Origin: Rhizobiaceae bacterium
GTDB taxonomy: Bacteria; Pseudomonadota; Alphaproteobacteria; Rhizobiales; Rhizobiaceae
DNA: 40,738 nt
NCBI GenBank assembly: GCA_014238155.1
Contig: JABABQ010000016.1
Span: 1 to 40,738, forward strand
Direction: 5' to 3'
Position numbers and translations under genes: made by a program. This document shows positions 11,044 through 36,047 of this stretch, piece after piece. The notes beneath the pieces were generated by a model. The model was given only the letters and a program-made list of their open reading frames with translations, had not been told where the DNA came from and did not search any database. Each line of letters opens with the position of its first letter. Within the stretch, counting starts at the first letter, position 1.

Positions 11044-11634
11044 CTATTTTACTATCACGGTCAAAAACCTGACATCCCCAGCGGAAATTGTTTGCGGCCC
11101 ATGTGGCATTTCACTGTCAAATGTAAGCGAGTCACCAGCACTCATCTGGTAAGATTCTTCGCCAATGCGATAGGTCATTTCGCCTTCAATCATGTGAATG
11201 AACTCGATGCCGGGATGCAGAAATAGCGGCTGCCCGGCGGCACTATTCTTGATGGTGATCAAATAGCATTCAGCATCGTTTCCATTTGCGGATACACGGC
11301 CAATCAACTGATAATTATGACCGTAAGTGCTGCCGGTTCGGCGTGTTTCAATCCCTGCATTTGCCTTCACGTAGGATATTTCCTTACGTTCAACAGTTGC
11401 AGCAAACAGATTTGCAATGGGCACGCCCATACCATTGGCCAGTGCATCAAGCGTTGACAGAGAGGCCGATACCTGCCCGCGTTCGATTTTTGAGATCATC
11501 GCGCTTGAAACGCCCGAAAGGGCTGAAAACTCCGCCAGCGTATGGTTTTGGTCGATCCGAAATTGATGGACAGCCTCGCCAACATTTTCTTCAAGGCTTT
11601 TGGGCGGATTTGCAGGTTTTTCTACCGAACTCAT
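11044..11634 (-). CDS. XRE-family regulator with C-terminal cupin domain
   Basis: A protein of 196 aa. Residues about 18-75 form a Cro/C1-type helix-turn-helix (LAEFSALSGVSSAMISKIER, GQVSASLSTLDALANGMGVP). Residues about 115-195 form a small cupin (LFLHPGIEFIHMIEGEMTYR, SAGDSLTFDSEMPHGPQTIS). This architecture, as in PuuR and related regulators, controls amine, polyamine and amino-acid catabolic operons by binding a small effector in the cupin. It lies upstream of the desaturase-ferredoxin pair on the same strand (71 bp gap) and divergent from the RidA-deacylase operon, so it probably controls one or both. Two overlapping palindromes at 11763-11792 are candidate operators. Confidence 0.85.
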   Translation of the reverse strand: MSSVEKPANPPKSLEENVGEAVHQFRIDQNHTLAEFSALSGVSSAMISKIERGQVSASLSTLDALANGMGVPIANLFAATVERKEISYVKANAGIETRRTGSTYGHNYQLIGRVSANGNDAECYLITIKNSAAGQPLFLHPGIEFIHMIEGEMTYRIGEESYQMSAGDSLTFDSEMPHGPQTISAGDVRFLTVIVK

Positions 11635-11762: not shown

Positions 11763-11792
11763 TGAACATTAGTAGATTATGTTCATACATAA
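11763..11792. promoter_or_regulatory. Two overlapping palindromes in divergent XRE / RidA region
   Basis: First: TGAACAT, 9-bp spacer, ATGTTCA (11763-11785). Second, overlapping: TTATGT-TCAT-ACATAA (11777-11792). Both have perfect arms. They lie 103-132 bp upstream of the RidA-like start and 129 bp upstream of the XRE-cupin start, a plausible operator position for either. Confidence 0.5.
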
Positions 11793-13393: not shown

Positions 13394-14263
13394 TTATCGT
13401 TTCTCAAGCCGCCTGAATAGCAAAGATAACCCAAAACAAATCACGAAGTAGAACGCTGCAGCCACAAGCCAGGCTTCAAATATCAAGCGGGTCGAAGCGA
13501 CGAGTTCGACTGTTTTGAAAGTGAGTTCCTGAACCGAAATCAGGGATACCAATGAGCTGTCCTTGACGAGACTGATGAATTGGTTGGCGAGCGGTGGCAA
13601 AACTTTGCGCAGAGCCTGCGGCAGAATTATGAAGCGCATTTCTTGCAACTGGCTCATACCGATGGAGCGGGCGGCCTCGCGCTGACCAACGCCAATGGAT
13701 TGAATGCCTGCCCGCACGATTTCGCCAACAAATGCGCTTTCAAACAAGGCCAGCACAATGACGCCGGAAATAAGTGAGGGAAATCTTCGCATGTCCCCGA
13801 ACAGGAATGTCCAGATTGCGTTGTCTTCCTGACGGGCAATGCCCCGTGCCCAGCTTTCCATGTTCAGCGCGACAATCAGTTGTTCAGACAAGAAAAAGAA
13901 AAATATGAAAATGACAACGACCGGCGGAACATTGCGCAGAAACTCAAGATAGGTTCGCGCCAGCATGCGTACGGTCAGGTTTGTAGAACAGCGCGCCACG
14001 CCAAGGATGACGCCCAGTATCAGCGCCAGAAATCCAGCATAAATACTGATGCGAACGGTAGAAACCAAACCCTGCATCAACAGGTTGGCCACCCAGCGGT
14101 CTTCCGATTCCTTATAGCGGAATATGTAGTTTGGGATCTTTTCCCAGCGCCAATCGTAATTCAGCGCTCCCTCGATGCGCGCAACGATGGTTACCGTCGC
14201 CACAATCAGCAGCGCCAATATCACGTAATCCAGCCAATGGAAGCGCTTGAGGGAATTAAGCAT
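13394..14263 (-). CDS. Polar amino-acid ABC transporter, permease subunit 2
   Basis: An inner-membrane permease of 289 aa of the His/Glu/Gln-type family. After a long N-terminal segment there are about five transmembrane helices. The EAA-type cytoplasmic loop that docks the ATPase reads GIQSIGVGQREAARSIGMSQ, followed by FIILPQALRKVLPPLANQFI, diagnostic of this family. It forms the channel with the other permease of this operon (15198-16025). It is the last of four genes and is set off from the binding-protein gene by a strong hairpin, so it may be made in smaller amount. It converges on the deacylase gene. Confidence 0.9.
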   Translation of the reverse strand: MLNSLKRFHWLDYVILALLIVATVTIVARIEGALNYDWRWEKIPNYIFRYKESEDRWVANLLMQGLVSTVRISIYAGFLALILGVILGVARCSTNLTVRMLARTYLEFLRNVPPVVVIFIFFFFLSEQLIVALNMESWARGIARQEDNAIWTFLFGDMRRFPSLISGVIVLALFESAFVGEIVRAGIQSIGVGQREAARSIGMSQLQEMRFIILPQALRKVLPPLANQFISLVKDSSLVSLISVQELTFKTVELVASTRLIFEAWLVAAAFYFVICFGLSLLFRRLEKR

Positions 14264-16810: not shown

Positions 16811-16826
16811 TTATGTCTGTGTTTAT
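16811..16826 (+). promoter_or_regulatory. Candidate HutC-type GntR operator, copy 1 (ABC importer)
   Basis: TTATGTCTGTGTTTAT, 36 bp upstream of the importer ATPase start. It matches copies 2 and 3 at 13 of 16 positions each. The three copies share TTATGTCT and the TTAT end. Confidence 0.5.
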
Positions 16827-16924
16827 TTTTGTTTGGCAACCCCCTTTTTTTGACCATGGCTTTGGCCACCTAGGAGGTTCAAATATATAGTAATATCTGG
16901 GTTAATTGGACAATCGACGGGTAG

Positions 16925-18286
16925 TCAGCGACTGGTAAGTCCTCCGATTTTCTGGTCTGCAATCCGTTTTGCGATGAAAAGAGACATCATCAATCCTGTC
17001 ACCACAGCCAATGCTATACCGAGGCGCACACCCAGTAGTTCCAAATCAAAGACCTGCGTAAACAGCCAAATGAACAAGGCAATGCCAATCCCCTGTCGAT
17101 ATATGCCGATCCACATCGTCCAAACGGCCTTCTTCAGCGCCTGCAGGAGTGAGTTTACCGAAAACAAGACAACATAAATTGGTAATACAACCGCCTCAAC
17201 CTGTAGGAACAGCCCACCAATGCGGACAACTTCGGGATCGTCTGAAAACAAACTGGTGGCAAAACCGCCGAAAAACCACAGAAGAGGAAAAGCCGCGGTG
17301 GTCGCCAGAACGCCCAATGTCCAACATCGCCGGAACGATTGTCGGACACGGTCATAGTCCTGTTTGCCATAATTTTGCGCGGCAATCGGCACGAGGGCAA
17401 TGGTGATTCCCACCGCAGGCAACAAGAATAATTGCTCAATGCGCAGTGAAATTCCGTAGGCTGCGAGTGCCTCCTCGCCATAATCCTTCAGTGCAAACTG
17501 CACCACAAATCCGCTGGCAAAATTTATCAGAAGGGCCAGCGCGGCTGGCGAGGCCTGACTAGCGATCTCCCAGTATTTTGTCGCCACAGGTTTAAATTCT
17601 CGCCATTGTAAATTCTGCATCATCGCTCGTGAGAATATTTTGAAAAGCAGAAATACGGCAACTCCGGTCTGGCTGAGAACAGTCGCCAGCGCGATGCCGT
17701 TAAAACCCATGCCCGGCACCAGACCAGGCAGACCAAACATCAGCAATGGGTTGAGCAAAATATTTGCAAAGAATGCGACGACCAGAGCCCGTTGCATGGA
17801 AACCGTGTCTCCGCGTGCCTGCAATATGCCGTTTGCCGTATAGGCAAGAACGAAGCCGGGCAGGGACAGGATCAACCAGTAAAAATAAGACAATCCAGCC
17901 TCGCGATATGGACCGGGTTGCGATACCAGCGCGATCAGCAGCGGGCCAAGCAAAAGCGCAATTATGATTGATGCGAGCGTCGCGCAGACGGCCAGACCTA
18001 TACCCTGCGCCGCGAGACGTCTGGCATCGGCGATATCTTTGCGCCCCCTGGCATTTCCAACCAACGCACTCATCGCGGAGCCGAGGCCAAATCCCACCGC
18101 AATGAGCACAAAAAACGCCTGAAATCCGACGGCCAGTCCGGCTTGTGCCTGCGTTCCAAAGAACCCTGCATAGAACGTATCGACGATGTTATAGAGGGTG
18201 CTGAACAACATTCCGATCGCCGCCGGGATAGCAAGCCTACGGAAATGACCGTTGATCGGCCCAGTCGTCAGGTCTTCTTCAATCAT
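16925..18286 (-). CDS. MATE-family efflux transporter
   Basis: A multidrug-and-toxin-extrusion protein of 453 aa with about 12 transmembrane helices, the normal size. The N-terminal helix 1 region FRRLAIPAAIGMLFSTLYNI and VDTFYAGFFGTQAQAGLAVG are typical, as is the repeat start in the second half, LLPAVGITIALVPIAAQNYG. It exchanges cations for organic compounds at the inner membrane. It sits between a HutC-type GntR gene and an amino-acid importer on the same strand, with a shared motif upstream (18358-18373), so it probably exports a toxic substrate analogue or intermediate of the same pathway. That role is inference. Confidence 0.9.
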   Translation of the reverse strand: MIEEDLTTGPINGHFRRLAIPAAIGMLFSTLYNIVDTFYAGFFGTQAQAGLAVGFQAFFVLIAVGFGLGSAMSALVGNARGRKDIADARRLAAQGIGLAVCATLASIIIALLLGPLLIALVSQPGPYREAGLSYFYWLILSLPGFVLAYTANGILQARGDTVSMQRALVVAFFANILLNPLLMFGLPGLVPGMGFNGIALATVLSQTGVAVFLLFKIFSRAMMQNLQWREFKPVATKYWEIASQASPAALALLINFASGFVVQFALKDYGEEALAAYGISLRIEQLFLLPAVGITIALVPIAAQNYGKQDYDRVRQSFRRCWTLGVLATTAAFPLLWFFGGFATSLFSDDPEVVRIGGLFLQVEAVVLPIYVVLFSVNSLLQALKKAVWTMWIGIYRQGIGIALFIWLFTQVFDLELLGVRLGIALAVVTGLMMSLFIAKRIADQKIGGLTSR

Positions 18287-18357
18287 CGAGGATAATTTCC
18301 CGCCGGGAAATCAGAAATACACAAAAGCCGGCAGTGTTAAAATGCACACATACGACT

Positions 18358-18373
18358 TTATGTCTATTGTTAT
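18358..18373 (+). promoter_or_regulatory. Candidate HutC-type GntR operator, copy 2 (MATE gene)
   Basis: TTATGTCTATTGTTAT, 72 bp upstream of the MATE start and downstream of the GntR gene. It agrees with copy 3 at 14 of 16 positions. Confidence 0.5.
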
Positions 18374-18459
18374 TAATGGTCGTCGGATCGGAGCGCGGTT
18401 CTCCGGCAGAAGTTGAGCGATATTTGGTGCGTGTCCCAATGTACTGATATTCGGGTCAA

Positions 18460-19149
18460 TCAGAAGCGGGTCGTCATCTTGTAATCTCGAGAGAAATAGA
18501 GCCGCGCATAGGTTACGCATGTCTTATCCAACCATGTCGTGCGCTCGGCTGTGAAGATAGCCGTATTCTCCGATGTGTTCAAAAAATTCGCAATATCCGT
18601 TGTTGCATTGGTTGCAGAAAACACCAATTCGCCGTCAGTAAACGGCACTTCCCGCACCAGCCATTCATTTGGGCCAATGTCTTCAAAATCGAAACTCGCA
18701 GCGTTGGGAACCGCAGCAAGATTGATCCAGCGATCTTCATACTGATAGGGAGTGCGATTGCCATAATGCATACATTTTAGCTGTAAGATTTTTTGATTTT
18801 TCGAAAGTCCAATTCGCGAACGCAACCAGCCGGGAGCTACAATCATCTCCCGTTCGACCAACACGTAGCTATAGTCTGCTCCACTATTGGTGATCTCCTC
18901 ACGAATGATCGGTATCGAGAACTGCGCCCGGCGCGTTGGAGAAGATTTTACTTTCGTTCCTGCTTTACGTTTGCGTTCGAGAATGCCCTCATCAACCAGT
19001 TCGCGCATTGCCCGGTTTACGGTCGCCCGTGCGCATCCAAACTCTTTGGCCAACTCTATCTCGCCTGGAAGGTTAGCTCCGGGGGGCCATGTATTATCTC
19101 GGATTCGCCGAAGTACATCTGCCTTAATGTCGTGATAACTTGTTCGCAA
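18460..19149 (-). CDS. GntR-family regulator, HutC type (UTRA domain)
   Basis: A regulator of 229 aa. Residues 1-70 form the GntR winged helix (GANLPGEIELAKEFGCARAT, VNRAMRELVDEGILERKRKA); residues about 85-229 are a UTRA ligand domain (PYQYEDRWINLAAVPNAASF, TAERTTWLDKTCVTYARLYF, ending KMTTRF). HutC proteins repress histidine-use operons and respond to urocanate; this one is next to hutD and divergent from a NicX/M29-like gene, so a related heterocycle or amino-acid effector is plausible. The only in-frame start near the domain is TTG at 19149, with no good ribosome binding site, so the exact start is unsure. The copy of the shared motif at 19170-19185 lies just upstream, consistent with autoregulation. 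Confidence 0.85.
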   Translation of the reverse strand: MRTSYHDIKADVLRRIRDNTWPPGANLPGEIELAKEFGCARATVNRAMRELVDEGILERKRKAGTKVKSSPTRRAQFSIPIIREEITNSGADYSYVLVEREMIVAPGWLRSRIGLSKNQKILQLKCMHYGNRTPYQYEDRWINLAAVPNAASFDFEDIGPNEWLVREVPFTDGELVFSATNATTDIANFLNTSENTAIFTAERTTWLDKTCVTYARLYFSRDYKMTTRF

Positions 19150-19169
19150 TTTGGGGCCAATCAGAATTA

Positions 19170-19185
19170 TTATGTCTATACTTAT
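19170..19185 (+). promoter_or_regulatory. Candidate HutC-type GntR operator, copy 3 (GntR / NicX-like divergent region)
   Basis: TTATGTCTATACTTAT. Its core GTCTATAC has the GT-N4-AC form expected for HutC-subfamily regulators. It lies 21 bp upstream of the GntR start and 181 bp upstream of the NicX-like start. Confidence 0.6.
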
Positions 19186-19365: not shown

Positions 19366-20478
19366 ATGTACGATGCGTCGCAAACCCGGATCACAGCGGG
19401 CGCACGAAATCTTTTGATTAACTGCGCTGAATGCAGGCCTGGGCAATTGCTTCTGGTTGTGCATGAAACCGAAGCGGACGGGTATTACGATCCCGAGCTG
19501 ACGACTGAGATCGTAAAAAACGCGCAAGAGCTTGGTCTTCATACTGAGCTTTATGGGGTGCCTTTACTGAGAGATGTCAGCGACCCAAGCGCAATCCTGA
19601 AATCCAAGATCGAAGCTGCGGATTGCACATTGTATCTGGCGCGATTGGGTGACCAACTCCGGTTTCGAGGTGATGGTGCGTCCACCAATCAAATAATCAG
19701 CTATGCGCTGGATCGCGAAATGCTGGCTTCGCCCTTTGGCACAATTGACTACCGGGTGTTTGAGGAACTTAAGAATCTGGTCAACCGCGCCGTCGCCAGG
19801 GCCTCCGAGATTCATGTAACTTGTCCTGCAGGGACGGATTTTCGGGGCAGGCCTATGGAGTTTTCAGAAACCAGTGGGGATACAATCCTCAAGCGTTTTC
19901 CATTGTCAATTTTCACGCCGATTCCCGCCAGGGGTTTTTCCGGACGTATCGCCCAAAATGGGTTCCTTACAGGAACTGGTTCGAACTATTATTTGCCGTG
20001 GTCGTGCGAGATAAGGGAAACGCTTTTTGTAAATTTTGAAGACTCCCGAATAACAGGATTTGACGGGACACAAAGAGACATGGAAGCTGCCAAGAAACAC
20101 TATGAATTTGTCGGCAACAAATACGGCATCGACACATATTGCGTCCATTCCTGGCATGCAGGCATTCACCCGGGATGCGAATTTGTTGAACCGGCAGGCC
20201 GCTATTTTGAGCGCTGGAGCGGTAGCGCCTTTGGCAATCCGCGGCTTCTGCACTTCCACACATGCGGCGACTATCCGCCCGGAGAGATTTCGCTGAATTT
20301 GCTGGATCCAACCGTGCGCATTGACGGTGTGGAAATCTGGCAGGACGGCAGGTTGATCCCCGACAGGTTGCCGGGCGGTCGTGAGCTTTTGGGAGCAAAT
20401 CCTGAATTGTACGCCGCCTTCCAAGACCCGGCGACGCGGGTTGGTCAGTCCGAAAGTGGCCGGCTGGTATATGGGTGA
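19366..20478 (+). CDS. M29/NicX-like metalloenzyme superfamily protein
   Basis: A protein of 370 aa related to the superfamily shared by M29 aminopeptidases and NicX (2,5-dihydroxypyridine 5,6-dioxygenase). Indicators are an N-terminal Rossmann-like domain (LINCAECRPGQLLLVVHETE, KNAQELGLHTELYGVP), the middle motif EIHVTCPAGTDFRGRPMEFS, and the C-terminal strands EISLNLLDPTVRIDG. In M29 enzymes and NicX an H-x-D pair in the last part binds metal; here the aligned positions read GEISLN, so that pair looks replaced. Nearby histidines (H261, H264, H268, H296, H298) and D302 might form a different site. It starts after a good site (GAAGGGA) and overlaps hutD by 8 bp. A ring-opening or hydrolytic role on a heterocycle is possible; peptidase annotation should be doubted. 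Confidence 0.65.
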   Translation: MYDASQTRITAGARNLLINCAECRPGQLLLVVHETEADGYYDPELTTEIVKNAQELGLHTELYGVPLLRDVSDPSAILKSKIEAADCTLYLARLGDQLRFRGDGASTNQIISYALDREMLASPFGTIDYRVFEELKNLVNRAVARASEIHVTCPAGTDFRGRPMEFSETSGDTILKRFPLSIFTPIPARGFSGRIAQNGFLTGTGSNYYLPWSCEIRETLFVNFEDSRITGFDGTQRDMEAAKKHYEFVGNKYGIDTYCVHSWHAGIHPGCEFVEPAGRYFERWSGSAFGNPRLLHFHTCGDYPPGEISLNLLDPTVRIDGVEIWQDGRLIPDRLPGGRELLGANPELYAAFQDPATRVGQSESGRLVYG

Positions 20479-21048: not shown

Positions 21049-21960
21049 TTATCCAGGCGCCTTGGCGGCTTCCTCATGGATCCACGATCGAAATGCCTGC
21101 ACTGAATTGGATTGCAGTGCCGCATGCTGACAGACAAACCAATAGGAAAACTGCGACTGGGCGAATTCGCCAAACGGATAAACCAGGGTGCCGTTACCTA
21201 TGGCGTCCTTGACCAGCGGGCTGCGCCCCATCGCAACACCCAAACCGTTAATAGCTGCCTGAATGACCAGATTTGCCTGTCCGTATTTTCGAGCGCGCGT
21301 AAAGTGTGGCAGATTGAGGTTGTTTTCCTTGGCCCAGAATTCCCAGTTTGAAATACTTCTGGGTGTTTCGAGAGTGTCCTGCAAAATGACGTGGTTGTTC
21401 AGATCAGAAATACTGTCCAGGCCCTTTGCGACAATGGGAGAGCAGACGGGGGCCATGGATTCCGACATAAGTTTTTCTGCGTGCATGTTGTTAAAACCGC
21501 CACCGCTGTATGAAATGATAATGTCTGCCTGACCCGATACGGGATCCAACGACTTGGGGTCAGTGGAAATGGAAATGGGTATTTCTGGATTAATTTCATC
21601 GAATTCAAGTAACCGTGGCAGAAGCCACACGAATGCAAACCCAGGGGGGGCTGCGACATGAATCCCTCGGTTTTGGGAGGATTTCGCATTGCGTAAGTCG
21701 TCGCAAACCAGTTCAACAGCTCCAAAGCCGTCACGTATTGACCGGGCCAACAAAGCACCGGTTTCAGTTGGCAATGTGTGAGGATTTTGTCGAATGAGCA
21801 ATCGGTGTCCCAACCATTCTTCGAGCAGTTTGATGTGTTGGCTGACCGCACTTTGCGTCACGTTTAGTTCATCAGCGGCACGTCCAAAGCCCTGCAACCG
21901 GACCACGGATTCCAACGTTCGCAATGCATTGAAAGGAAGTGTTTTTAGCATTTCTGTCAC
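21049..21960 (-). CDS. LysR-family regulator (GcvA-like)
   Basis: A protein of 303 aa. The HTH domain (LPFNALRTLESVVRLQGFGR, AADELNVTQSAVSQHIKLLE, EWLGHRLLIR) is of the GcvA type, followed by a normal substrate-binding domain. A GTG at 21960 preceded by GAAGGA (6 bp away) is the best start; an ATG lies three codons in. The stop is 11 bp from the hutD stop, convergent. It is divergent from the Rieske oxygenase gene (326 bp between starts), where two palindromes fit LysR binding, so it most likely activates that gene. Confidence 0.88.
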   Translation of the reverse strand: MTEMLKTLPFNALRTLESVVRLQGFGRAADELNVTQSAVSQHIKLLEEWLGHRLLIRQNPHTLPTETGALLARSIRDGFGAVELVCDDLRNAKSSQNRGIHVAAPPGFAFVWLLPRLLEFDEINPEIPISISTDPKSLDPVSGQADIIISYSGGGFNNMHAEKLMSESMAPVCSPIVAKGLDSISDLNNHVILQDTLETPRSISNWEFWAKENNLNLPHFTRARKYGQANLVIQAAINGLGVAMGRSPLVKDAIGNGTLVYPFGEFAQSQFSYWFVCQHAALQSNSVQAFRSWIHEEAAKAPG

Positions 21961-22286
21961 GTTGATCCTTCAAGCCACAAGATCGGTCGCAAATCCGTCA
22001 TGACTGCTGCCAGAAGGGAAGCTGGATTTGCACAAGCTCTCATTTCCATCACTCAATTATGAATGGACATAAATATTTTAAGGTCATGATTTCCCTGTGG
22101 CAAGGTAATGTCGATCTGTCGGCTCAATTTACCTCACGGGCTGTCCAACCATGTTCTGGTTGGCGAAGGCGCCCTCACGGCAAAGCGACTATTAGAATTT
22201 CTAATGCCCACTATTGAGAGACGACGGTGGCGCGTTACCGCTATTGTCCCTAAACTTGCTTCAAAGGTTTTGAGATGGAGAGACAT
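21961..22286. promoter_or_regulatory. Divergent LysR / Rieske oxygenase control region with two palindromes
   Basis: Two symmetric elements are visible: TTATG-AATGGA-CATAA (22057-22072) and ATTAGAA-T-TTCTAAT (22191-22205), the second with exact T-N11-A spacing as in LysR boxes. A further perfect hairpin, CCAACCA-TGTTC-TGGTTGG (22145-22163), may form in the leader RNA. No gene is supported in this 326-bp stretch. Confidence 0.5.
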
Positions 22287-23324
22287 ATGTTCCTACGCAA
22301 TTGCTGGTACGTCGCCGGGTGGAGCAAAGATTATGAACAATGTCTCAAGGCACAGACATTATTGGGCGAGAACATTGTCTTTTATCGGCAGGCCGACGGA
22401 AAGCCCGCGGCACTTGAAGATGCCTGTCCTCACCGCAAATTGCCCTTGTCGATGGGACAACTTGAGGATGATCATGTCGTATGTGGTTATCACGGGCTGA
22501 CTTTCGACTGCACCGGCCATTGCATCGATTCTCCCACTCAACGTGGCATGACACCGCGCCGGGCCGTCGTTCGATCCTATCCCGTTGTTGATCGCTATCG
22601 CCTGCTTTGGATTTGGATGGGTGACCCCGATAAAGCCGATCCCGATGAGATTTTCAAAATCGAGAATTTTGACAATACCGATTGGGGCTATACCGATGGC
22701 GGTTTGCTGCCGATCGCCTGCAACTACCTATGGGTGACCGACAATTTGCTCGACCCAAGTCATGTGGCATGGGTGCATGTCACTTCATTTGCAGGTGGCG
22801 GGACGGATGATCAACCGCTCGACATGGAAAAGACCGAACGTGGCGTCATCGTATCGCGCTGGATACATGACCAACCAGCTTCGCCGTATTACAAGGATCT
22901 GGTGAAGTTTGAGGGAAACTGCGATCGCAAGCAGCATTACGAAATGTGCTACCCGGCAATTGCTCTCAACATGTCGGTTTACTCACCCGTTGGTACCGGA
23001 GGGCCCGATAAGCCGGCAGTCGACAAGACTTACGTCAACATCTCCTATAATTTCATGACACCGGTGGATGAAGACAATACCCAGTATATCTGGTTCCAGC
23101 ACCGCAATACCGACCCCAACGATAAGGCCATTTCCAAAAAAATGAATGACGGGGCGATCATGGCTTTCAACGAGGACAAGGAAATTCTTGAGGCGGTTCA
23201 CAAGGGAATGCGGGATAAGGTCACACGCAACATTGATCTCGGTCTGGATCTCGGGGCGAAGACATTTCGATTGCAGCTGCAGCGACTGATCGATGCTGAA
23301 AACAAAGTAACCGAAGCGGTTTAG
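22287..23324 (+). CDS. VanA-type Rieske non-heme iron oxygenase
   Basis: A protein of 345 aa from the ATG at 22287, with GGAGAG 5 bp upstream (an ATG at 22275 is less fitting, since the family begins MFLRNxWYVAxW). Rieske ligands are C47-P-H49 and C66-x2-H69; the mononuclear iron site is in TDNLLDPSHVAWVH (D156, H159, H164) with a distal aspartate or glutamate. The layout is that of vanillate O-demethylase and related aromatic demethylases or hydroxylases. VanA normally pairs with a VanB reductase; none is adjacent. Electrons could come from the FAD reductase at 24384-25604 through the ferredoxin at 9691-10008. Its stop overlaps the convergent amidohydrolase stop. The product would be a catechol or hydroxylated acid. 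Confidence 0.88.
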   Translation: MFLRNCWYVAGWSKDYEQCLKAQTLLGENIVFYRQADGKPAALEDACPHRKLPLSMGQLEDDHVVCGYHGLTFDCTGHCIDSPTQRGMTPRRAVVRSYPVVDRYRLLWIWMGDPDKADPDEIFKIENFDNTDWGYTDGGLLPIACNYLWVTDNLLDPSHVAWVHVTSFAGGGTDDQPLDMEKTERGVIVSRWIHDQPASPYYKDLVKFEGNCDRKQHYEMCYPAIALNMSVYSPVGTGGPDKPAVDKTYVNISYNFMTPVDEDNTQYIWFQHRNTDPNDKAISKKMNDGAIMAFNEDKEILEAVHKGMRDKVTRNIDLGLDLGAKTFRLQLQRLIDAENKVTEAV

Positions 23325-24343
23325 CTCAAAGCTCTCTGCCGAAGCTTTTCAAGATGGGTGAACAAATCATCTGCAGTCCTCCACGCTATTTGTGATTTTT
23401 CATCATCGGTGAGGTCGGCAGGTGCCAACGCGTGAGCAAACGGATCGTCCTTGAAGATTGGATAGTCCGACCCCAGCATTATCCTGTCCGCACCAAAAAG
23501 TTTTACCGCTGCCTCCAGCGCCCGTGGGCCCAGCGAAGCACAGTCATACCATAAGCGGCGCAGTCGCTCCGTGGGGAACGGTTCATCGGGATTGCGGTGC
23601 CGAGCGATGCTTTCGATTCGCTCAAATATAAACGGCAGCGTTCCACCGAGATTGACGACCTGGAAAGTGATATTTGAATAGGCGTCCAACATATCCGACA
23701 GAATAACGGTCATGGCGACCTGCGCGGCGCTCGACTGCAACTCGATGGCAGACAGTCGGTACTGCACATTATCCGCTGGTCGGGCGGGGGGCTCCTGTCC
23801 CACTTTCAATCCCGGATGAAGCATGATGTGGCAACCATATTCATTTGCGGCTTCCAGCAATGGCCGCATCTCATCAGACTCTTCCAACGTGTTGAAATAG
23901 TTTGATGGCAGGATGATTCCGGGCAGGCCGAGATCGCGTCGTATGCGTTTAACTTCTGCGCAGGCAAGGTCCATATCGTCCAGCGGCAGACCCGCCAATC
24001 CAATCAACGCACCGTCTGTTTCCTGGGTCAACTGCGCCAGATGATCATTGTATTTGGAGATCGCTGCAGAGATTTCATTCGCGGGTAAGAGATCAACCCC
24101 CAAGGCCCCAGGAAAGGTCAACAGGCGTTGGGTTAATCCCGCTTCCCTCATTTCGGCCAGCCCAACGTGATGGTCATAGTAGTGCTCGGTGAATGGAAAT
24201 TCGCCGTTCATGGCAATCATGACGATCACGCCATCTTCCCGGGTTCGCAGATAGGGACGCTTTTGACGGGCTTTCAGGGTGTCCACCAAGCCGCCACCAT
24301 AAAAGTGGGAATGCATGTCAATTCGTCTGTTGCTTTGGTCCAT
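23321..24343 (-). CDS. Amidohydrolase-family protein (ACMSD-like)
   Basis: A metal-dependent TIM-barrel hydrolase or decarboxylase of 340 aa. The N-terminal metal motif is D-M-H11-S-H13; further likely ligands are H177-region (GCHIMLHPGLK) and the aspartate of IMLGSDYPIF. The order and length fit the ACMSD subgroup of amidohydrolases (aminocarboxymuconate-semialdehyde, 5-carboxyvanillate and resorcylate decarboxylases), which remove a carboxyl group from aromatic or muconate acids without O2. A good site (AGAGGA) precedes the ATG. It is the second gene after the ferredoxin reductase (40 bp gap, same strand). In context it may decarboxylate a product of the Rieske oxygenase; hydrolysis of a lactone or amide is the alternative. 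Confidence 0.8.
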   Translation of the reverse strand: MDQSNRRIDMHSHFYGGGLVDTLKARQKRPYLRTREDGVIVMIAMNGEFPFTEHYYDHHVGLAEMREAGLTQRLLTFPGALGVDLLPANEISAAISKYNDHLAQLTQETDGALIGLAGLPLDDMDLACAEVKRIRRDLGLPGIILPSNYFNTLEESDEMRPLLEAANEYGCHIMLHPGLKVGQEPPARPADNVQYRLSAIELQSSAAQVAMTVILSDMLDAYSNITFQVVNLGGTLPFIFERIESIARHRNPDEPFPTERLRRLWYDCASLGPRALEAAVKLFGADRIMLGSDYPIFKDDPFAHALAPADLTDDEKSQIAWRTADDLFTHLEKLRQRALS

Positions 24344-24383: not shown

Positions 24384-25604
24384 TCATATCAATGATTTCA
24401 AATCTATATCTAGATTTGATACTGCAGCGGGGTCAGGTGATTTTCCATTTTCGATCAATCGTCTGCCAACCATAAATTCACGCGGTGCGTTCATGGCGTC
24501 TACAGCCAATAGCTTATCACCCGAATAATACCAGTGCGAGACGGTTACTGGAATGTCGCCGTCACTGCCGCCGCCGCCGCGAGTAATGACACGATCAAAA
24601 CCGGTATTCAGCCCTGCAATCTGTAATTTTACATCAAACTGATCGGACCAGAACCAAGGTTTGGCGACATACTCGATCTGGCTGCCCAAGATATTTGCGG
24701 CTATCGCTTCGGCCTGGCCGATGGCGTTCGGAACACTCTCCAGTCTGATCCGCCTCCGGTTAAATGGAAACGAAGCGCAGTCGCCGGCAGCCCAAATGTG
24801 GGGTAGGGATGTGCGGCCAAATGCATCTGTCTCGATACCATTTTGGAATTTGGCACCGGCTTTTTCAGCCAAGAGTGTGTTGGGACGGATGCCAATTCCG
24901 ACAAGCACAAAGTCGACGTCCAAAGTATCGCCGTTGGACAGTACTGCGCCGCTAACGCGTGTTTCGCCTAGCAGTCGCTCCAATCCGACGCCCTCGCGGA
25001 TCGTGACACCATGGCTTTGATGAAGGTGCCTGAAGTAGTCGGAAGTTTCAGGGGCTGCAACACGTTGCAATATACGTTCAGCCATCTCAACGACTGTGAC
25101 ATTGAGGCCCTTCTTGGCCGAAACTGCTGCAGCTTCCAGACCGATATAGCCACCGCCGACAATCAGGACTTTGCTACCTTTTACAAATTCCGGGCCCATC
25201 GCATCAATATCAGCAAGCGCTCGGATGGCGTAAACGCCGTCTAATGTTCCACCAATTGAAGCCGGTAATCTGATCGGTGATGAGCCGGTGGTCAGGATCA
25301 GTTCATCATAAGAGATTGTTTCATCTTGAGCGGACACGGTTTGCGTCTCCGCATCGATAGATGTGACCAAAGCTCCTAACATCAAACGAATGTCATTTGC
25401 TGCGTAGCTGGCTTCTGATTTTAGGAGCAGACGGTCACTTCCAATCTCGCCAAGCAGATAGCCTTTTGACAAGGGCGGTCGCTGGTAAGGCGGGAAGGTT
25501 TCTTCGCCGATCAGCGTAATGGCACCCTTATGCCCGAGGCTGCGAAGCTTGAATGCAGCGGAACATCCCGCCTGTCCCGTTCCAATGATGACGACATGTG
25601 TCAT
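24384..25604 (-). CDS. FAD-dependent ferredoxin reductase (rhodocoxin/putidaredoxin-reductase type)
   Basis: A protein of 406 aa. It has two dinucleotide folds: FAD motif VIIGTGQAGCSAAFKLRSLG near residue 5 and NAD motif VLIVGGGYIGLEAAAVSAKK near residue 146. Further landmarks are LTTGSSPIRLP, the IWAAGDCASFPF FAD segment, and a C-terminal reductase domain starting near WFWSDQFDVKLQIAG. Such enzymes move electrons from NAD(P)H to [2Fe-2S] ferredoxins of oxygenases. Neither gene next to it encodes a ferredoxin; the Rieske protein at 9691-10008 is the only one in the window. It heads an operon with the amidohydrolase. A palindrome-like TTAAGT-CCAG-ACATAA lies 16 bp upstream of its start. Confidence 0.9.
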   Translation of the reverse strand: MTHVVIIGTGQAGCSAAFKLRSLGHKGAITLIGEETFPPYQRPPLSKGYLLGEIGSDRLLLKSEASYAANDIRLMLGALVTSIDAETQTVSAQDETISYDELILTTGSSPIRLPASIGGTLDGVYAIRALADIDAMGPEFVKGSKVLIVGGGYIGLEAAAVSAKKGLNVTVVEMAERILQRVAAPETSDYFRHLHQSHGVTIREGVGLERLLGETRVSGAVLSNGDTLDVDFVLVGIGIRPNTLLAEKAGAKFQNGIETDAFGRTSLPHIWAAGDCASFPFNRRRIRLESVPNAIGQAEAIAANILGSQIEYVAKPWFWSDQFDVKLQIAGLNTGFDRVITRGGGGSDGDIPVTVSHWYYSGDKLLAVDAMNAPREFMVGRRLIENGKSPDPAAVSNLDIDLKSLI

Positions 25605-25619: not shown

Positions 25620-25635
25620 TTAAGTCCAGACATAA
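25620..25635. promoter_or_regulatory. Candidate operator upstream of ferredoxin reductase
   Basis: TTAAGT-CCAG-ACATAA, a near match (10 of 12 fixed positions) to TTATGT-N4-ACATAA at 11777-11792. The palindrome CATAATTATG follows closely at 25636-25645 region. Regulator unknown; the neighbouring LysR or IclR gene could encode it. Confidence 0.35.
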
Positions 25636-25758: not shown

Positions 25759-26499
25759 TTAGATTTTGTCCTGCAATTGCTGGATTGTTGCTTCCAGTTG
25801 TTGCTTGGCTTGATGGACAAATTCCGGGTCAAATCGGCTGAGCATGCCAAATACTGAAATCGACAGTTCCATTTGGCCTTCCTTATTTTTCAAAGGCATG
25901 GATATGGCTGCAATATCGGGCTCGTTTTCTCCCAGATTTACGGCATAGCCTTGTCGTTGGATCAGATGCAACTCGTCATCCATTTGGTTGGGCACTACAG
26001 CTTCTCTGTCTGAAATGGTCAGAGCTGAAAGACGTTTGACTCTTTCCGGCTCAGACATCTGCGCCAACCAAAGTTTTCCTTGGGCTGACCGGTTCAGCGG
26101 CAATAGCGTTCCGACTTTGATGTGAACCGAAATTGCCCTGCGGGAATTGGCCACCGCGATGCAGGTCGGGCCGTAGCGTGACAGGCGGCAGGCCATGACA
26201 GACTCGTTTAAATGGCCGCTGAGCGCCTCCAATTTGGGTGTTACCACGGCGGCAATTGAATTTGCCTCTTCGGCCAACCATCCCAGCCTTCCAATCTTCG
26301 GGCCAAGGGCAAACGTGCCGCGTCGGATGCTCCTCAGCGCACCAACTTGTTCCAGCGTCATCAAAAGACGGTGCGCCGTCGCGTTGTTCATCTGAAGATT
26401 TTCGGCAACCAACGCGCTGTCGATTTGCTGTCGCTGTTCGGTGAACAGTGACAGAATTTCAAATCCTTTGACAATCGATCCATTCAGCGGTGTTGCCAT
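25759..26499 (-). CDS. IclR-family transcriptional regulator
   Basis: A protein of 246 aa from the ATG at 26499 (a TTG at 26544 would add 15 residues of low complexity). The N-terminal winged helix reads IVKGFEILSLFTEQRQQIDS, then NLQMNNATAHRLLMTLEQVG; the remainder is the IclR effector domain (SVMACRLSRYGPTCIAVANS, VGTLLPLNRSAQGKLWLAQM). Many IclR proteins control aromatic-acid catabolism (PcaR, MhpR). It is divergent from the aldehyde dehydrogenase gene, with a large imperfect palindrome between them, so it most likely controls the dehydrogenase-decarboxylase operon. Confidence 0.88.
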   Translation of the reverse strand: MATPLNGSIVKGFEILSLFTEQRQQIDSALVAENLQMNNATAHRLLMTLEQVGALRSIRRGTFALGPKIGRLGWLAEEANSIAAVVTPKLEALSGHLNESVMACRLSRYGPTCIAVANSRRAISVHIKVGTLLPLNRSAQGKLWLAQMSEPERVKRLSALTISDREAVVPNQMDDELHLIQRQGYAVNLGENEPDIAAISMPLKNKEGQMELSISVFGMLSRFDPEFVHQAKQQLEATIQQLQDKI

Positions 26500-26551
26500 A
26501 GATCTACCTGGTTTTGTCGCCGTGCTGACGATGCTTGACTCCAAGACCCGT

Positions 26552-26591
26552 ATCTTAAATAATATGAGAAATCAATCTCAATATATAAGAT
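26552..26591. promoter_or_regulatory. Large imperfect inverted repeat between IclR and aldehyde dehydrogenase genes
   Basis: Outer arms ATCTTA and TAAGAT enclose inner arms TGAGA-AATCAA-TCTCA. The two halves (ATCTTAAATAATATGAGA and the reverse complement ATCTTATATATTGAGA) differ only by a small insertion and few substitutions. It ends 13 bp before the dehydrogenase ATG. This fits an IclR operator that blocks or activates the promoter. Confidence 0.55.
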
Positions 26592-26604
26592 TTAGGATAT
26601 ATCG

Positions 26605-28053
26605 ATGGACATTGGATTGCTGATAGACAACACCGATGTTCCAGCTGACGGAGATGGTCAGTTTGAGCGCAGGTCGCCGGTATCCGGTAAAATTGCTACC
26701 AAGGCTGCAGCCGCCGGTAAGCAGGATGTTGATGCTGCGGTCAAGGCCGCGGCCAAGGCGTTTCCGGCCTGGTCGAGCATGGGGCCGGGCCTGCGCCGAA
26801 AGATACTCAATGACTGTGCCGATGCCCTGGAGGCCCGGACTGCTGACTTTATTACATTGGGTCAGGAAGAGACCGGTGGCACCGCCCCGTGGTATGGATT
26901 CAATGTCATGCTGGCCGCAGGCATGTTGCGCGAAGCTGCTTCAATGACAACGCAGATTAAAGGCGAAATCATCCCGTCAAATAAGCCCGGCACATTGTCT
27001 ATGGGCTATCGTCAACCGGTCGGTGTGCTGGTTGGCATGGCGCCCTGGAATGCCCCCATCATTCTGGGAGTACGTTGCTTTGCCATGCCCTTAGCCTGCG
27101 GCAATACACTCGTCATGAAGGCATCGGAAAAATGCCCCGGGCTTCATCGTTTGATCGGTGACTGCATGGTTGAAGGTGGATTGCCAAAGGGTGTTTTGAA
27201 CATCATCACCCACTCCGCAAAAGCTGCACCTGATGTCGTCAACGCGTTGATTGACCATCCTTTGACGCGGCGGATTAATTTTACCGGTTCCACACGTGTG
27301 GGCCGGATCATTGCTGAACGGGCGGCGAAACATCTCAAACCGTGTTTACTGGAACTGGGTGGTAAGGCCCCGTGTATTGTATTGGAGGATGCCGACATCG
27401 ATGCTGCGGTGAAGGGCGCAGCCTTTGGTGCGTTCATGAATCAGGGTCAGATCTGCATGTCGACAGAAAAGATCATCGTCGTTGAAGAAATTGCCGATGC
27501 GTTTTGCGCGGCGTTCGTCGAAAAGGCAGAAAGCCTCAAAACCGGTAATCCGGACGAGCAGGTTCACCTGGCCTCGGTGGTTGATCGCGATACAATCGAT
27601 CATGTCGCCAAGCTAATTGATGATGCAACTTCGAAAGGCGCGCAGGTCCTGGCTGGCGGTTCGCCCAAAAAAGGTACAATTATGCCGGCCACAATTGTCG
27701 CCGATGTGACGCCAAAGATGGACATCTATGCGGCCGAAAGCTTTGGACCTATCACGACCATCATTCGTGCCCGGGACGAGGATCATGCAGTCGATATTGC
27801 CAATGACACCGAATATGGCTTGAGTTCCGCTGTTTTCACCCAGAACATTCAGCGCGGGTTGGAAATCGCAAAACGATTGCAAACCGGCATCGCCCACATC
27901 AATGGCCCTACCGTGGGCGATGAAGCGCAGATGCCATTTGGTGGCACCAAGGCAAGCGGGTATGGCCGCTTTGGTGGAACCGCCGCGATCGATGAGTTTA
28001 CCGAATTGCGCTGGATCACCATAGAAGATCCCGACCAGCATTATCCAATTTAG
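26605..28053 (+). CDS. Aromatic aldehyde dehydrogenase (vanillin/benzaldehyde type)
   Basis: An NAD(P)-dependent aldehyde dehydrogenase of 482 aa. Catalytic Cys284 sits in NQGQICMST, the general base Glu250 in LLELGGKAP, and the oxyanion Asn149 in APWNAP; the cofactor loop is FTGSTRVG. The C-terminus (HINGPTVGDEAQMPFGGTKA, SGYGRFGG, EFTELRWITI) is typical of vanillin, salicylaldehyde and benzaldehyde dehydrogenases rather than aliphatic ones. It would oxidise an aromatic aldehyde to the acid. It is followed 17 bp later by a benzoylformate-decarboxylase-like gene whose product would be just such an aldehyde. It is controlled from the region shared with the IclR gene. Confidence 0.9.
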   Translation: MDIGLLIDNTDVPADGDGQFERRSPVSGKIATKAAAAGKQDVDAAVKAAAKAFPAWSSMGPGLRRKILNDCADALEARTADFITLGQEETGGTAPWYGFNVMLAAGMLREAASMTTQIKGEIIPSNKPGTLSMGYRQPVGVLVGMAPWNAPIILGVRCFAMPLACGNTLVMKASEKCPGLHRLIGDCMVEGGLPKGVLNIITHSAKAAPDVVNALIDHPLTRRINFTGSTRVGRIIAERAAKHLKPCLLELGGKAPCIVLEDADIDAAVKGAAFGAFMNQGQICMSTEKIIVVEEIADAFCAAFVEKAESLKTGNPDEQVHLASVVDRDTIDHVAKLIDDATSKGAQVLAGGSPKKGTIMPATIVADVTPKMDIYAAESFGPITTIIRARDEDHAVDIANDTEYGLSSAVFTQNIQRGLEIAKRLQTGIAHINGPTVGDEAQMPFGGTKASGYGRFGGTAAIDEFTELRWITIEDPDQHYPI

Positions 28054-28070
28054 TCAGGATCGATTGCACC

Positions 28071-29801
28071 ATGCTTCAAAAAATGACATTGGATTCAAAC
28101 ATCTCTGCCGGCGGTGCCCTGTTCGGTAAGTTGAAGGCGCTTGGTGTTGATTATGTATTTGCAAATTCCGGCACAGACTTTCCGCCGATCATTGAAGGGC
28201 TGATTGAGGCGCGCGAGAAGGGTGTTGAATTGCCGACAGCGATCACCGTGCCGCACGAGCATGTCGCCGTTGGCATGGCGCATGGATATTATCAGATCTC
28301 TGGTCGCCCGCAGGCGGTTTTGCTGCATACCAATGTGGGTCTGTCGAATGGAGCAACGGGTGTCATCAATGCCGCCTGTGATCAAATACCAATGTTCTTG
28401 ATGTCCGGGCGAACGCCTGTCACCGAGGCTGACCGGTTCGGAGCGCGCACCGTGCCCATCGGTTGGGGGCAGGAAATGTATGATCAAACGGCGCTGGTGC
28501 GTGAGGCGTGCAAGTGGGACTATGAATTGCGGTTTCCAGAACAGGTTGCCGAGGTTCTCGACCGGGGTTGGGCAATATCGAATTCAACACCCAAGGGACC
28601 GGTCTATCTCAGCCTGCCGCGAGAAGTATTATGCGAGCCCTGTCCCTTTGATGGGTTGGATCAGCCTTCGCGCATGGCACCAGCCCACACTTTGCCGTCA
28701 AACCAGTCGATGGAACAGGCCGCCAAATTATTGGCCAATGCCAAGCGTCCGCTGATCATTGCCCAGCGCGGAGCAGGTTCCCAACAGGCGTTCGATGCAC
28801 TAACCGAATTTGTCGAAAGCCGGGCGATTCCCGTTTCTCATTACTGGGCCAATCAGATTTCCATTCCGATGACCAGCCCGAGCCACGTTGGCTGGGTCCC
28901 GGGTCCGTTGTTGGCGGATGCCGATGTGATTCTCGTGGTCAATGCTCTGGCGCCTTGGTGGCCGGATAAGTTTGCGCCATCCGAAGACGCAAAAATAATA
29001 CATCTGGGTCCCGACCCACTGTTTGCACGTTCAACCCCGATCAGAAACTTCCGCTCCGACATCACTCTGTCTGGCGATACTGATGCTGCCCTGCTGGAGT
29101 TGATTGCCAAGGTTGGTTTGCATCCCATTGACCGCACCTCAATCGAAATGCGGCGCAGGCGCATCACCGATACAGGCTCAGGCGAGCGGGTGCGAATTGC
29201 CGATGAAGCGAAGTCTGGCAACGGTGGTCCCATGTCAAAGGAGTGGGTCAGCCATTGCCTCAGTCAGGCAATCCGCGGCCGTAAGGTCAGCGTGTTCCAC
29301 GAATTGGGCTGCCCGCTGCCAGCTTTGCAGCTGGACGACCATCTCAGCTATTTTCAGGAACCGCATTCCGGCGGGTTGGGCTGGGGAGTGCCGGCGGCCA
29401 TGGGTGCGCAACTGGCCGACCCGGGCCGGCTTGTATTCGCTACGGTGGGTGATGGTAGTTACATGTTTGCCAATCCGACCGTATGCCATCAGGTCTGCGA
29501 GGCACTTCGTCTGCCAATCGTCATTCTCGTGCTCAACAATGAAGAATGGGGTGCGGTTCGACATTCTGTAGAAAGCCTCTATGAAGGCGGTCGGGCAACA
29601 AAGGCCAACGAAGTGCCTTTGACATCGCTTCAGCCAAGCCCGGATTTTACGATGACTGCAAAAGCCAGCCGGGCACATGCGGAAAATATCACTGAGGGTG
29701 ATGATCTCCCAGCCGCCCTCAATCGTGCCATTCACATTGCGACACAGGAAAAGCGGCAGGTTCTGCTCAACATCGCGATTCGACGAACGAGCCCGCACTG
29801 A
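28071..29801 (+). CDS. Thiamine-diphosphate enzyme, benzoylformate-decarboxylase-like
   Basis: A protein of 576 aa with the three ThDP-enzyme domains. The activating Glu63 is in TVPHEHVAVG. His86, in LLHTNVGLSNG, aligns with the catalytic His of benzoylformate decarboxylase (HSAAGTGN). The ThDP/Mg motif GDGSYMFAN runs to LVLNNEEW. Decarboxylases of this group turn 2-oxo acids into aldehydes; acetolactate-synthase-like carboligases share the fold, so a ligase role is the alternative. Co-transcription with an aromatic aldehyde dehydrogenase supports decarboxylation of an arylglyoxylate to aryl aldehyde and then to the acid, as in mandelate breakdown. The protein is about 45 residues longer than BFD, mainly in the middle domain and the linker after MRRRRITDTG. 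Starts at 28071 or 28083 are both possible. Confidence 0.8.
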   Translation: MLQKMTLDSNISAGGALFGKLKALGVDYVFANSGTDFPPIIEGLIEAREKGVELPTAITVPHEHVAVGMAHGYYQISGRPQAVLLHTNVGLSNGATGVINAACDQIPMFLMSGRTPVTEADRFGARTVPIGWGQEMYDQTALVREACKWDYELRFPEQVAEVLDRGWAISNSTPKGPVYLSLPREVLCEPCPFDGLDQPSRMAPAHTLPSNQSMEQAAKLLANAKRPLIIAQRGAGSQQAFDALTEFVESRAIPVSHYWANQISIPMTSPSHVGWVPGPLLADADVILVVNALAPWWPDKFAPSEDAKIIHLGPDPLFARSTPIRNFRSDITLSGDTDAALLELIAKVGLHPIDRTSIEMRRRRITDTGSGERVRIADEAKSGNGGPMSKEWVSHCLSQAIRGRKVSVFHELGCPLPALQLDDHLSYFQEPHSGGLGWGVPAAMGAQLADPGRLVFATVGDGSYMFANPTVCHQVCEALRLPIVILVLNNEEWGAVRHSVESLYEGGRATKANEVPLTSLQPSPDFTMTAKASRAHAENITEGDDLPAALNRAIHIATQEKRQVLLNIAIRRTSPH

Positions 29802-32480: not shown

Positions 32481-32512
32481 TCCTTATTCGGGGAGACTGG
32501 AAAGGATAGATC

Positions 32513-34726: not shown

Positions 34727-34747
34727 CGAGCAATACCGTCAATCGTC

Positions 34748-36046: not shown

Positions 36047-36047
36047 T

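What the first reader, a model, noticed from the sequence alone, without database searches (positions are those of the whole stretch)
16811..19185. Three near-identical 16-bp elements link an ABC importer, a MATE exporter and a HutC-type regulator/NicX-like operon
TTATGTCTGTGTTTAT (16811), TTATGTCTATTGTTAT (18358) and TTATGTCTATACTTAT (19170) agree pairwise at 13-14 of 16 positions. They have the same orientation and lie 21-72 bp upstream of the minus-strand starts of the importer ATPase, the MATE and the GntR gene. The third also faces the divergent NicX-like/hutD operon. The core GTCTATAC fits the GT-N4-AC form known for HutC-subfamily GntR operators. The simplest reading is a self-contained regulon of uptake, export, sensing and enzymes. 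The GntR product as its reader is inference.
Basis: partly seen in the sequence, partly recalled or inferred. Interest (0 to 1): 0.75.

Follow-up and report, generated by a model that had tools for sequence, protein, structure and literature searches.

The report
HutC operators of a histidine regulon
The repeated 16-bp elements very probably belong to a set of binding sites for HutC, the bacterium's histidine-breakdown switch, which here seems to control both the ordinary histidine genes elsewhere in the genome and a neighbouring set of transport and oxygenase genes whose job is unproven.

Summary
The three elements exist as described; exact matches to their shared pattern occur nowhere else in the 4.8-Mb genome. 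They belong to a larger operator set. A matrix built only from other species' hutF/hutI promoters scores four window sites (11777, 19170, 22057, 25620) at 20-22 bits; the best of 399,700 background positions reaches 11.3. The genome's best match lies between hutF and hutI-hutH on another contig. The window GntR passes the HutC equivalog cut-off and is the only HutC-like protein found in this genome. So these are, very probably, HutC operators. The regulon is not self-contained: the core hut genes lie elsewhere. In relatives L028 and L030 hutF and hutIHGU sit between LysR and Rieske; the window lacks them but keeps their operator. Not seen in the papers I searched: HutC sites at a Rieske oxygenase, its probable reductase and an amidohydrolase. 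I infer, without biochemical proof, that these process modified histidines. 'NicX-like' could not be verified. All binding claims are computational.

The parts
18460..19149 (-). HutC repressor (GntR/UTRA), proposed reader of all sites
   Evidence: TIGR02018 HutC equivalog 273.5 bits against cut-off 220; GntR + UTRA domains; the 6 other matches in the genome are partial or at 23-37% identity
19170..19185 (.). Strong HutC operator in the hutC / 19366-ORF divergon (hutC promoter)
   Evidence: 20.6 bits, 0 of 399,700 background positions as good; related sequence at the same distance (-34 to -37) in L027-L030, with the exact half AGACATAA in L029 and L030 only
22057..22072 (.). Strong HutC operator between LysR and Rieske; same 16-mer as the hutF/hutI operator of Rhodobacteraceae relatives
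   Evidence: 22.0 bits; TTATGTCCATTCATAA exact in L027, L028, L029, L034 and one mismatch in L030, each time between hutI and hutF; similarity extends modestly beyond the 16-mer (27 bp at 89% with L027, 32 bp at 84% with L028)
25620..25635 (.). Strong HutC operator 15 bp upstream of the ferredoxin-reductase/amidohydrolase operon
   Evidence: 20.5 bits, 0 of 399,700 background positions as good; distance
11777..11792 (.). Strong HutC operator between cupin-HTH (-) and RidA/DoeB-like (+) genes
   Evidence: 22.3 bits, 0 of 399,700 background positions as good; not seen in L028
16811..16826 (.). Asymmetric HutC-site candidate over the importer promoter
   Evidence: Weak on the symmetric matrix (5.7 bits, 35 of 399,700 as good), but the only 0-mismatch genome match to the form of relatives' hutC promoters; similar in L028, decayed in L034; overlaps a promoter-like site, but such sites are no commoner here than in shuffles (4 against 3.6)
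18358..18373 (.). Borderline HutC-site candidate upstream of MATE
   Evidence: 10.7 bits, 3 of 399,700 as good, and a non-promoter window position (2182) scores 11.5; absent upstream of MATE in L028
16029..16775 (-). ABC importer ATPase (polar amino acid type)
   Evidence: PF00005
15198..16025 (-). ABC importer permease
   Evidence: PF00528
14329..15165 (-). ABC importer solute-binding protein, family 3
   Evidence: PF00497; ligand unknown
13394..14263 (-). ABC importer permease
   Evidence: PF00528
16925..18286 (-). MATE-family exporter
   Evidence: PF01554
19366..20478 (+).
   Evidence: No Pfam or NCBIfam family and no PDB relative; homologues in hut clusters L027, L028, L030, L034 and beside hutU in L151
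20381..21037 (+). HutD (true start probably downstream of the listed GTG)
   Evidence: PF05962
21049..21960 (-). LysR regulator next to the 22057 operator
   Evidence: PF00126/PF03466
22275..23324 (+). VanA-type Rieske oxygenase
   Evidence: PF00355 + PF19112; homologues in 11 of 57 HutC loci and about 850 bp downstream of hutU in same-genus G004 and G008
23321..24343 (-). Amidohydrolase_2, ACMSD-like
   Evidence: PF04909; nearest solved structures ACMSD
24384..25604 (-). FAD-dependent ferredoxin reductase, probable partner of the Rieske enzyme (pairing inferred)
   Evidence: PF07992 + PF14759
11799..12290 (+). RidA-family protein (true start probably the ATG near 11895)
   Evidence: PF01042
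12356..13351 (+). AstE/AspA-family deacylase (DoeB-like)
   Evidence: PF24827; TIGR02994 210.8 bits, below its cut-off 402.7
11044..11634 (-). Cupin-HTH regulator
   Evidence: PF07883 + PF01381

Best explanation
The elements are operators of HutC, the GntR-family repressor of histidine utilization, encoded at 18460-19149. HutC dimers bind 16-bp sites of the form TTATGTMTAKACATAA that overlap promoters and block RNA polymerase; urocanate (or another histidine-derived effector) releases them. In this genome HutC controls, at a distance, the hutF and hutIHGU genes on contig C13. In the window it controls its own promoter, the Rieske gene, the ferredoxin-reductase/amidohydrolase operon and probably the cupin-HTH/RidA-DoeB divergon and the amino-acid importer, with MATE uncertain. 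The window locus resembles a Rhodobacteraceae hut cluster from which hutF and hutIHGU are missing while their shared operator persists in front of Rieske. Shown by computation: motif, conservation, genome-wide specificity, HutC identity, absence of the hut genes from the window. Inferred: binding, repression, urocanate response, accessory-gene function, and the deletion/transfer history.
For: HutC equivalog score above cut-off; no second HutC-like protein found in the genome. Best genome match to the palindrome outside the window is at hutF/hutI, with hutH next to it. In other genomes 49 of 50 measured head-to-head hutF/hutI gaps carry the palindrome at 10 of 14 positions or better; the one miss, L037, shows a 21-bit site when the whole locus is scanned. 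Matrix from the 25 distinct ones of those 49 sites: four window sites at 20-22 bits, best of 399,700 background positions 11.3; 10 window positions at 8 bits or more against a mean of 3.0 (largest 6) for 30 column-permuted matrices. Consensus TTATGTMTAKACATAA with at most 2 mismatches: 6 places in the genome, 4 in the window and 1 at hut. hutC-promoter site at the same distance in 4 relatives, in varying strength. R41, T43, R46, A47 of the DNA-binding domain identical in 62 of 62 proteins. HutC-subfamily consensus GTMTAKAC is published (PMC4494728, passages); published HutC regulons include HutD and ABC transporters (PMC5343134, passages).
Against: No binding or expression data. On the matrix 16811 scores only 5.7 bits and 18358 10.7, below an intra-ORF window position at 2182 with 11.5. 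In the relatives only L030's hutC-promoter site reaches 13 bits; those of L027, L028 and L029 and L028's importer site do not. Upstream of hutC, 23 of 56 loci reach 10 of 14 and 7 reach 12; L031 and L034 give 8 and 9; no shuffle control was run there. 18358 is not conserved in L028, 11777 was not seen there. The core of 16811 overlaps a -10-like box, and L034 keeps promoter-like parts while the operator half decays. The backwards-pattern control gave more loose hits than the real patterns in G000, so only the top matches carry the argument. The TTAWGTCYRKACWTAW pattern was drawn from window sites. The assembly has 77 contigs and is 97.75% complete, so a second HutC could be missing.
Confidence: 0.86

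Rival explanations
1. The three elements are only similar -10 promoter boxes (AGACATAAT) of AT-rich promoters and no common regulator reads them.
For: CATAAT forms a -10-like hexamer at 16811; the ATPase promoter keeps -35/-10-like parts in L034 while the operator half decays.
Against: Exact pattern found only in this window in 4.8 Mb; palindromic sites at 22057 and 25620 score far above background; 49 of 50 measured hutF/hutI gaps in other genomes carry the palindrome.
Confidence: 0.06
2. Another regulator of the cluster (LysR 21049-21960, IclR 25759-26544 or cupin-HTH 11044-11634) reads the sites.
For: These regulators lie next to some of the sites.
Against: The palindrome sits at hutF/hutI across Rhodobacterales and Rhizobiales, while in the 57 loci held, one search lists a LysR relative in 8, the cupin-HTH in 1 and the IclR in none. 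HutC is present because the loci were found with it. GT-N4-AC is the HutC-subfamily form.
Confidence: 0.03
3. HutC reads the strong palindromes only; 16811 and 18358 are chance or relic half-sites and neither importer nor MATE is in the regulon.
For: Symmetric matrix scores 5.7 and 10.7 bits, 35 and 3 of 399,700 background positions as good; MATE site not in L028.
Against: 16811 is the only 0-mismatch genome match to the asymmetric form from relatives' hutC promoters and is similar in L028; the consensus was written after 16811 was known, so this is suggestive only.
Confidence: 0.3

Closest known systems
HutC regulon of histidine utilization in Proteobacteria (Leyn et al. 2016, PMC5343134, passages read)
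   Same: HutC-family repressor; core hut enzymes and HutD among targets; ABC importers and lineage-specific additions are usual.
   Different: The passages read name no Rieske oxygenase, ferredoxin reductase, ACMSD-like amidohydrolase, MATE or anything like the 370-aa protein; here hutC and these genes lie apart from the core hut operon.
Pseudomonas HutC with Phut operator TGTA-N2-TACA (PMC12977541, passages read)
   Same: Same regulator family, TGT-N4-ACA spacing, urocanate release, more than one site class and weaker secondary sites.
   Different: Operator here is longer, with GTMTAKAC at its centre and TTA/TAA ends.
GntR/HutC-subfamily operators NyGTMTAKACNy (Suvorova et al. 2015, PMC4494728, passages read)
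   Same: 19170 core GTCTATAC and the C13 site core GTATAGAC fit exactly.
   Different: 11777, 22057, 25620, 16811 and 18358 cores depart from it by one or more bases.

Membership tests
HutC (TIGR02018) | Score above the curated equivalog cut-off | tested here: met
   273.5 bits against 220
HutC (TIGR02018) | GntR winged helix plus UTRA effector domain | tested here: met
   PF00392 and PF07702 over their cut-offs
HutC regulon | Operator at the hut genes of the same genome | tested here: met
   C13:46878 between hutF and hutI-hutH, 25.7 bits; binding itself untested
HutC regulon | Regulator gene linked to hut genes (usual, not required) | tested here: not met
   In this genome hutC is on C58 and the hut operon on C13; no hutC remnant in the 18-kb C13 stretch. 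Linked in 54 of 57 fetched loci.
HutC regulon | Operator follows GTMTAKAC | tested here: inconclusive
   Exact at 19170 and C13:46878; departures at 11777, 22057, 25620, 16811, 18358
HutC regulon | Urocanate or histidine-derived effector releases DNA | not testable with these tools
   Needs protein and DNA
NicX / M29 dioxygenase (19366-20478) | Sequence or fold match to NicX/M29 | tested here: inconclusive
   No Pfam or NCBIfam match at 1e-3, no PDB relative; model mean pLDDT 51.5, not searched further
Rieske demethylases (VanA/DdmC type) | Rieske plus VanA_C domains | tested here: met
   PF00355 and PF19112; 7qwt and DdmC are the nearest solved chains
Rieske demethylases (VanA/DdmC type) | Demethylation of a histidine derivative | not testable with these tools
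   Needs enzyme assay

The most novel reading that the evidence does not exclude
In this lineage HutC governs, besides the core pathway, an undescribed feeder route. A VanA-type Rieske oxygenase with its reductase, an AstE/AspA-type deacylase and a dedicated importer would strip N-methyl or N-acyl groups from modified histidines and pass the histidine to a hut operon elsewhere in the genome. The feeder locus would have arrived as a Rhodobacteraceae hut cluster whose HutC replaced the resident one, after which the duplicated core genes were lost.
Probability: 0.28. Interest if true: 0.6.

Novelty: new member of a known kind. Interest (0 to 1): 0.42.

Why it matters
It turns a vague repeat into a proposed regulon with a named reader, a computed operator consensus for alphaproteobacterial HutC, and a testable list of targets. 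The recurrent Rieske-hut linkage gives an uncharacterised oxygenase family a narrow substrate hypothesis (histidine derivatives). The locus is also a readable case of a local regulator whose regulon lies in two places, with its core target genes missing from beside it.

Tried and rejected
'Self-contained regulon': rejected by the C13 site. 'NicX-like': tried Pfam, NCBIfam, PDB sequence search and one structure prediction; the model (pLDDT 51.5) was too poor, so no fold search was run. C1:65968 (16.1 bits) was looked at: it lies at the start of an ORF that I read as patatin-like, after one I read as HisI (both by eye, no family search); left as a candidate. Simple recent transfer of the whole window cluster: the HutC tree fits it (nearest relative a Boseongicola MAG at 83%), but Rieske homologues of 71-85% occur in three same-genus genomes with no site of 7 bits or more in the stretches held, so the Rieske gene may be older in the genus and the history stays open. 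A hutC remnant after hutU in C13 was sought and not found. In the literature searches that bear on Rieske with hut or methylhistidine I saw only listings and abstract openings; none of what I saw named a Rieske enzyme in a hut operon.

Errors of my own: the hutI query was out of frame by one base; one search repeats it correctly and only one search is used for counts. In one search hutF was represented by an antisense ORF chosen by length; searches use the real hutF. On re-checking I lowered the main confidence from 0.88 to 0.86, because several relatives' hutC-promoter sites score under 13 bits and the similarity around 22057 hardly extends beyond the 16-mer.
Full report
Observation. The three 16-mers are at the stated places, 35, 71 and 20 bp upstream of the minus-strand ATPase, MATE and GntR starts. 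Counted by eye, their pairwise identity is 13, 13 and 14 of 16. TTATGTCTNNNNTTAT without mismatch occurs 3 times in the 4,796,840-base genome, all 3 in the 40,738-base window; with at most one mismatch 14 places, 4 of them in the window, against 11 for the backwards control. If three places were scattered at random, all falling in the window has probability about 6e-7; the pattern was drawn from the sites, so this flatters them.

A better motif. Treating the element as a palindrome exposed further sites. TTATGTCTAGACATAA with up to 3 mismatches gives 4 window matches against 0.08 expected: 11777, 19170, 22057 and 25620. All four are intergenic.

Genome-wide. TTAWGTCYRKACWTAW (drawn from window sites) with at most 1 mismatch hits 5 places in the genome: 4 in the window and C13:46878. 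The last lies between an ORF that reads as HutF (L010:123-1481, minus) and one that reads as HutI (ATG at L010:1569, plus), followed by HutH. HutH at C13:48166-49662 scores 689.8 bits, over its curated cut-off. The names HutF, HutI, HutG and HutU on C13 are my reading of the sequences and order; only HutH was scored against a family. The backwards control gave more loose matches than the real pattern (34+32 against 13+15 at 2 mismatches; 27+27 against 15+15 at 3 mismatches), so matches with 2-3 mismatches elsewhere are not evidence.

The reader protein. The GntR product has GntR and UTRA domains and scores 273.5 bits on the HutC equivalog model, cut-off 220. Its genome has 7 matches to it at E<=0.001: itself and six that are partial or at 23-37% identity. 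A search of genome contigs with it gave 57 loci. Hut genes lie nearby in 54 of the 57 (not in L035, L079, L083); for five of these (L031, L041, L042, L061, L065) the only signal is an antisense ORF over hutF, confirmed as hutF.

Operator in other genomes. Between hutF and hutI, 50 head-to-head gaps could be measured out of 58 loci with a hit (7 lacked one gene, 1 was not head to head). 49 of 50 hold a palindrome of at least 10 of 14 positions with p below 0.05 in 200 mononucleotide shuffles; three are at 10 (L053, L065, L071). The miss, L037, has a site of 21 bits when the whole locus is scanned. Upstream of hutC itself the motif is patchy: 23 of 56 loci reach 10 of 14, 7 reach 12 or more (13 in L049, L052, L055, L056, L082), and of the 23 at 8 or less, 19 are Rhizobiales by record title (no shuffle control). 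Many of these may have hutC in an operon with hutF (inference).

Independent matrix. A matrix from the 25 distinct hutF/hutI sites, none from the window's genome, scores 11777 at 22.3, 22057 at 22.0, 19170 at 20.6, 25620 at 20.5 and C13:46878 at 25.7 bits. The best of 399,700 background positions from 20 stretches of the same genome is 11.3. C1:65968 scores 16.1, 18358 10.7 (3 background positions as good) and 16811 5.7 (35 as good). A window position inside an ORF (2182) scores 11.5, above 18358. Ten window positions reach 8 bits, against a mean of 3.0 and a maximum of 6 for 30 column-permuted matrices. The consensus TTATGTMTAKACATAA, written from other genomes' sites, finds 6 places at 2 mismatches or fewer, 4 in the window; P about 8e-8 for 4 or more of 6.

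The weaker sites. In gene orientation 16811 reads ATAAACACAGACATAA. The hutC promoters of L029 and L030 read ATAAATACAGACATAA and ATAAATATAGACATAA, and L027 ATAAACACGTACATAA. A consensus from these, ATAAAYAYAGACATAA, has one 0-mismatch match in the genome, 16811; 19170 follows with 1 mismatch, and 18358 is among seven places with 2. Total hits are 9 against 5 for the backwards control. I wrote that consensus after seeing 16811, so it is supportive, not independent. L028 has a similar site upstream of its ATPase; L034 keeps only promoter-like parts. TTGCCA-N18-CATAAT overlaps 16811, but promoter-like sites are no commoner in this stretch than in shuffles (4 against 3.6). The MATE site is not in L028, and 11777 was not seen there.

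What the window locus is. In L028 the order is Rieske-hutU-hutG-hutH-hutI | TTATGTCCATTCATAA | hutF-LysR-[370-aa protein]-hutC-MATE-importer-DoeB-like-cupin-HTH-desaturase. L030 also has the hut genes between Rieske and LysR; L027 shows no LysR and L034 a different order. The window has the L028 order without hutF and hutIHGU. The operator in front of its Rieske gene is the same 16-mer (other strand). Similarity goes only a little beyond it (27 bp at 89% with L027, 32 bp at 84% with L028), so descent from the hutF/hutI promoter is likely, not proven. The core hut genes on C13 are 76% identical in DNA to those of same-genus G003. There a hutC lies beside hutU on the opposite strand; at C13 it is missing, no remnant was found, and similarity to G003 resumes just beyond its place. 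The window HutC is nearest to Rhodobacteraceae proteins (83% to a Boseongicola MAG), while the six other HutC proteins from same-genus genomes fall elsewhere in the tree (quick tree, SH-aLRT supports only). The simplest history is that a Rhodobacteraceae-type cluster came in, its HutC took over the resident hut operator, and redundant parts were lost. This is inference; Rieske homologues in three other genomes of the genus (71-85%) without HutC sites in the stretches held complicate it.

Mechanism. HutC bound at sites over promoters would repress; urocanate would release it, as for Pseudomonas HutC (PMC12977541, passages). In the hutC promoter a related sequence lies 34-37 bp before the gene in the window and L027-L030. 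ATAARTAYAGACATAA holds in three of the five (window, L029, L030) and partly in L027 and L028; of the four relatives only L030 reaches 13 bits on the matrix. By eye it overlaps a TTG-N18-TATAAR promoter. Residues R41, T43, R46 and A47, in what I take for the recognition helix, are identical in 62 of 62 homologues and N45 in 61, which fits one shared operator.

Accessory genes. The Rieske protein has Rieske and VanA_C domains. Its nearest solved relatives are 7qwt and dicamba O-demethylase, with SxtT-type enzymes and the NdmA/NdmB N-demethylases further off. The ferredoxin reductase and amidohydrolase (ACMSD-like) lie in line behind one strong site. Rieske homologues occur in 11 of 57 HutC loci (L027, L028, L030, L034, L035, L038, L039, L044, L046, L065, L075) and about 850 bp downstream of hutU in same-genus G004 and G008. 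In L065 the Rieske gene has a 24-bit HutC site 16 bp upstream. In L044 the neighbours include a reductase with NAD-binding and 2Fe-2S domains (VanB-like, my label), an AstE/AspA-type deacylase and an oligopeptide-type ABC importer. From this I infer a route for modified histidines; the substrate is a guess from enzyme families and neighbours.

Comparison with the literature. Published HutC regulons contain the core enzymes, HutD and varied transporters (PMC5343134, passages), and the HutC-subfamily consensus is NyGTMTAKACNy (PMC4494728, passages). The operator and regulator are therefore a known kind. The Rieske, reductase and amidohydrolase targets are not in the passages I read, nor in the listings. 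RegPrecise itself could not be consulted.

Noticed in passing
G000:C1:65968-65983 (L014:1501-1516): A 16.1-bit HutC-like site at the start of an ORF that reads as patatin-like, just after one that reads as HisI (histidine biosynthesis); labels by eye. May be chance.
   Followed up: partly
L118, L161, L162, L151, L160: Rieske oxygenase about 850 bp downstream of hutU in two same-genus genomes; the 370-aa protein family next to hutU in L151 and divergent from a Rieske gene in L160. Both families turn up near hut genes in several lineages.
   Followed up: partly
L065:10909-10924: A 24-bit HutC site 16 bp upstream of a Rieske gene that is 53% identical to the window's, in Xinfangfangia.
   Followed up: partly
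L044:18014-18029 and L075:18011-18026: HutC sites of 20-21 bits about 80 bp upstream of HutD genes.
   Followed up: partly
window 30999-36668: Outer-membrane efflux protein, ABC transporter/ATPase, HlyD-type adaptor and a small RHH_4 protein in a row: looks like a type I secretion set, with no strong HutC site.
   Followed up: no
window 25759-29801: IclR regulator (PcaR/PobR-like), aldehyde dehydrogenase and a TPP-dependent enzyme; no strong HutC site in front of these genes, so probably a separate unit.
   Followed up: no
window 20381: The listed HutD ORF start overlaps the preceding gene; an ATG near 20471 is a likelier start.
   Followed up: no
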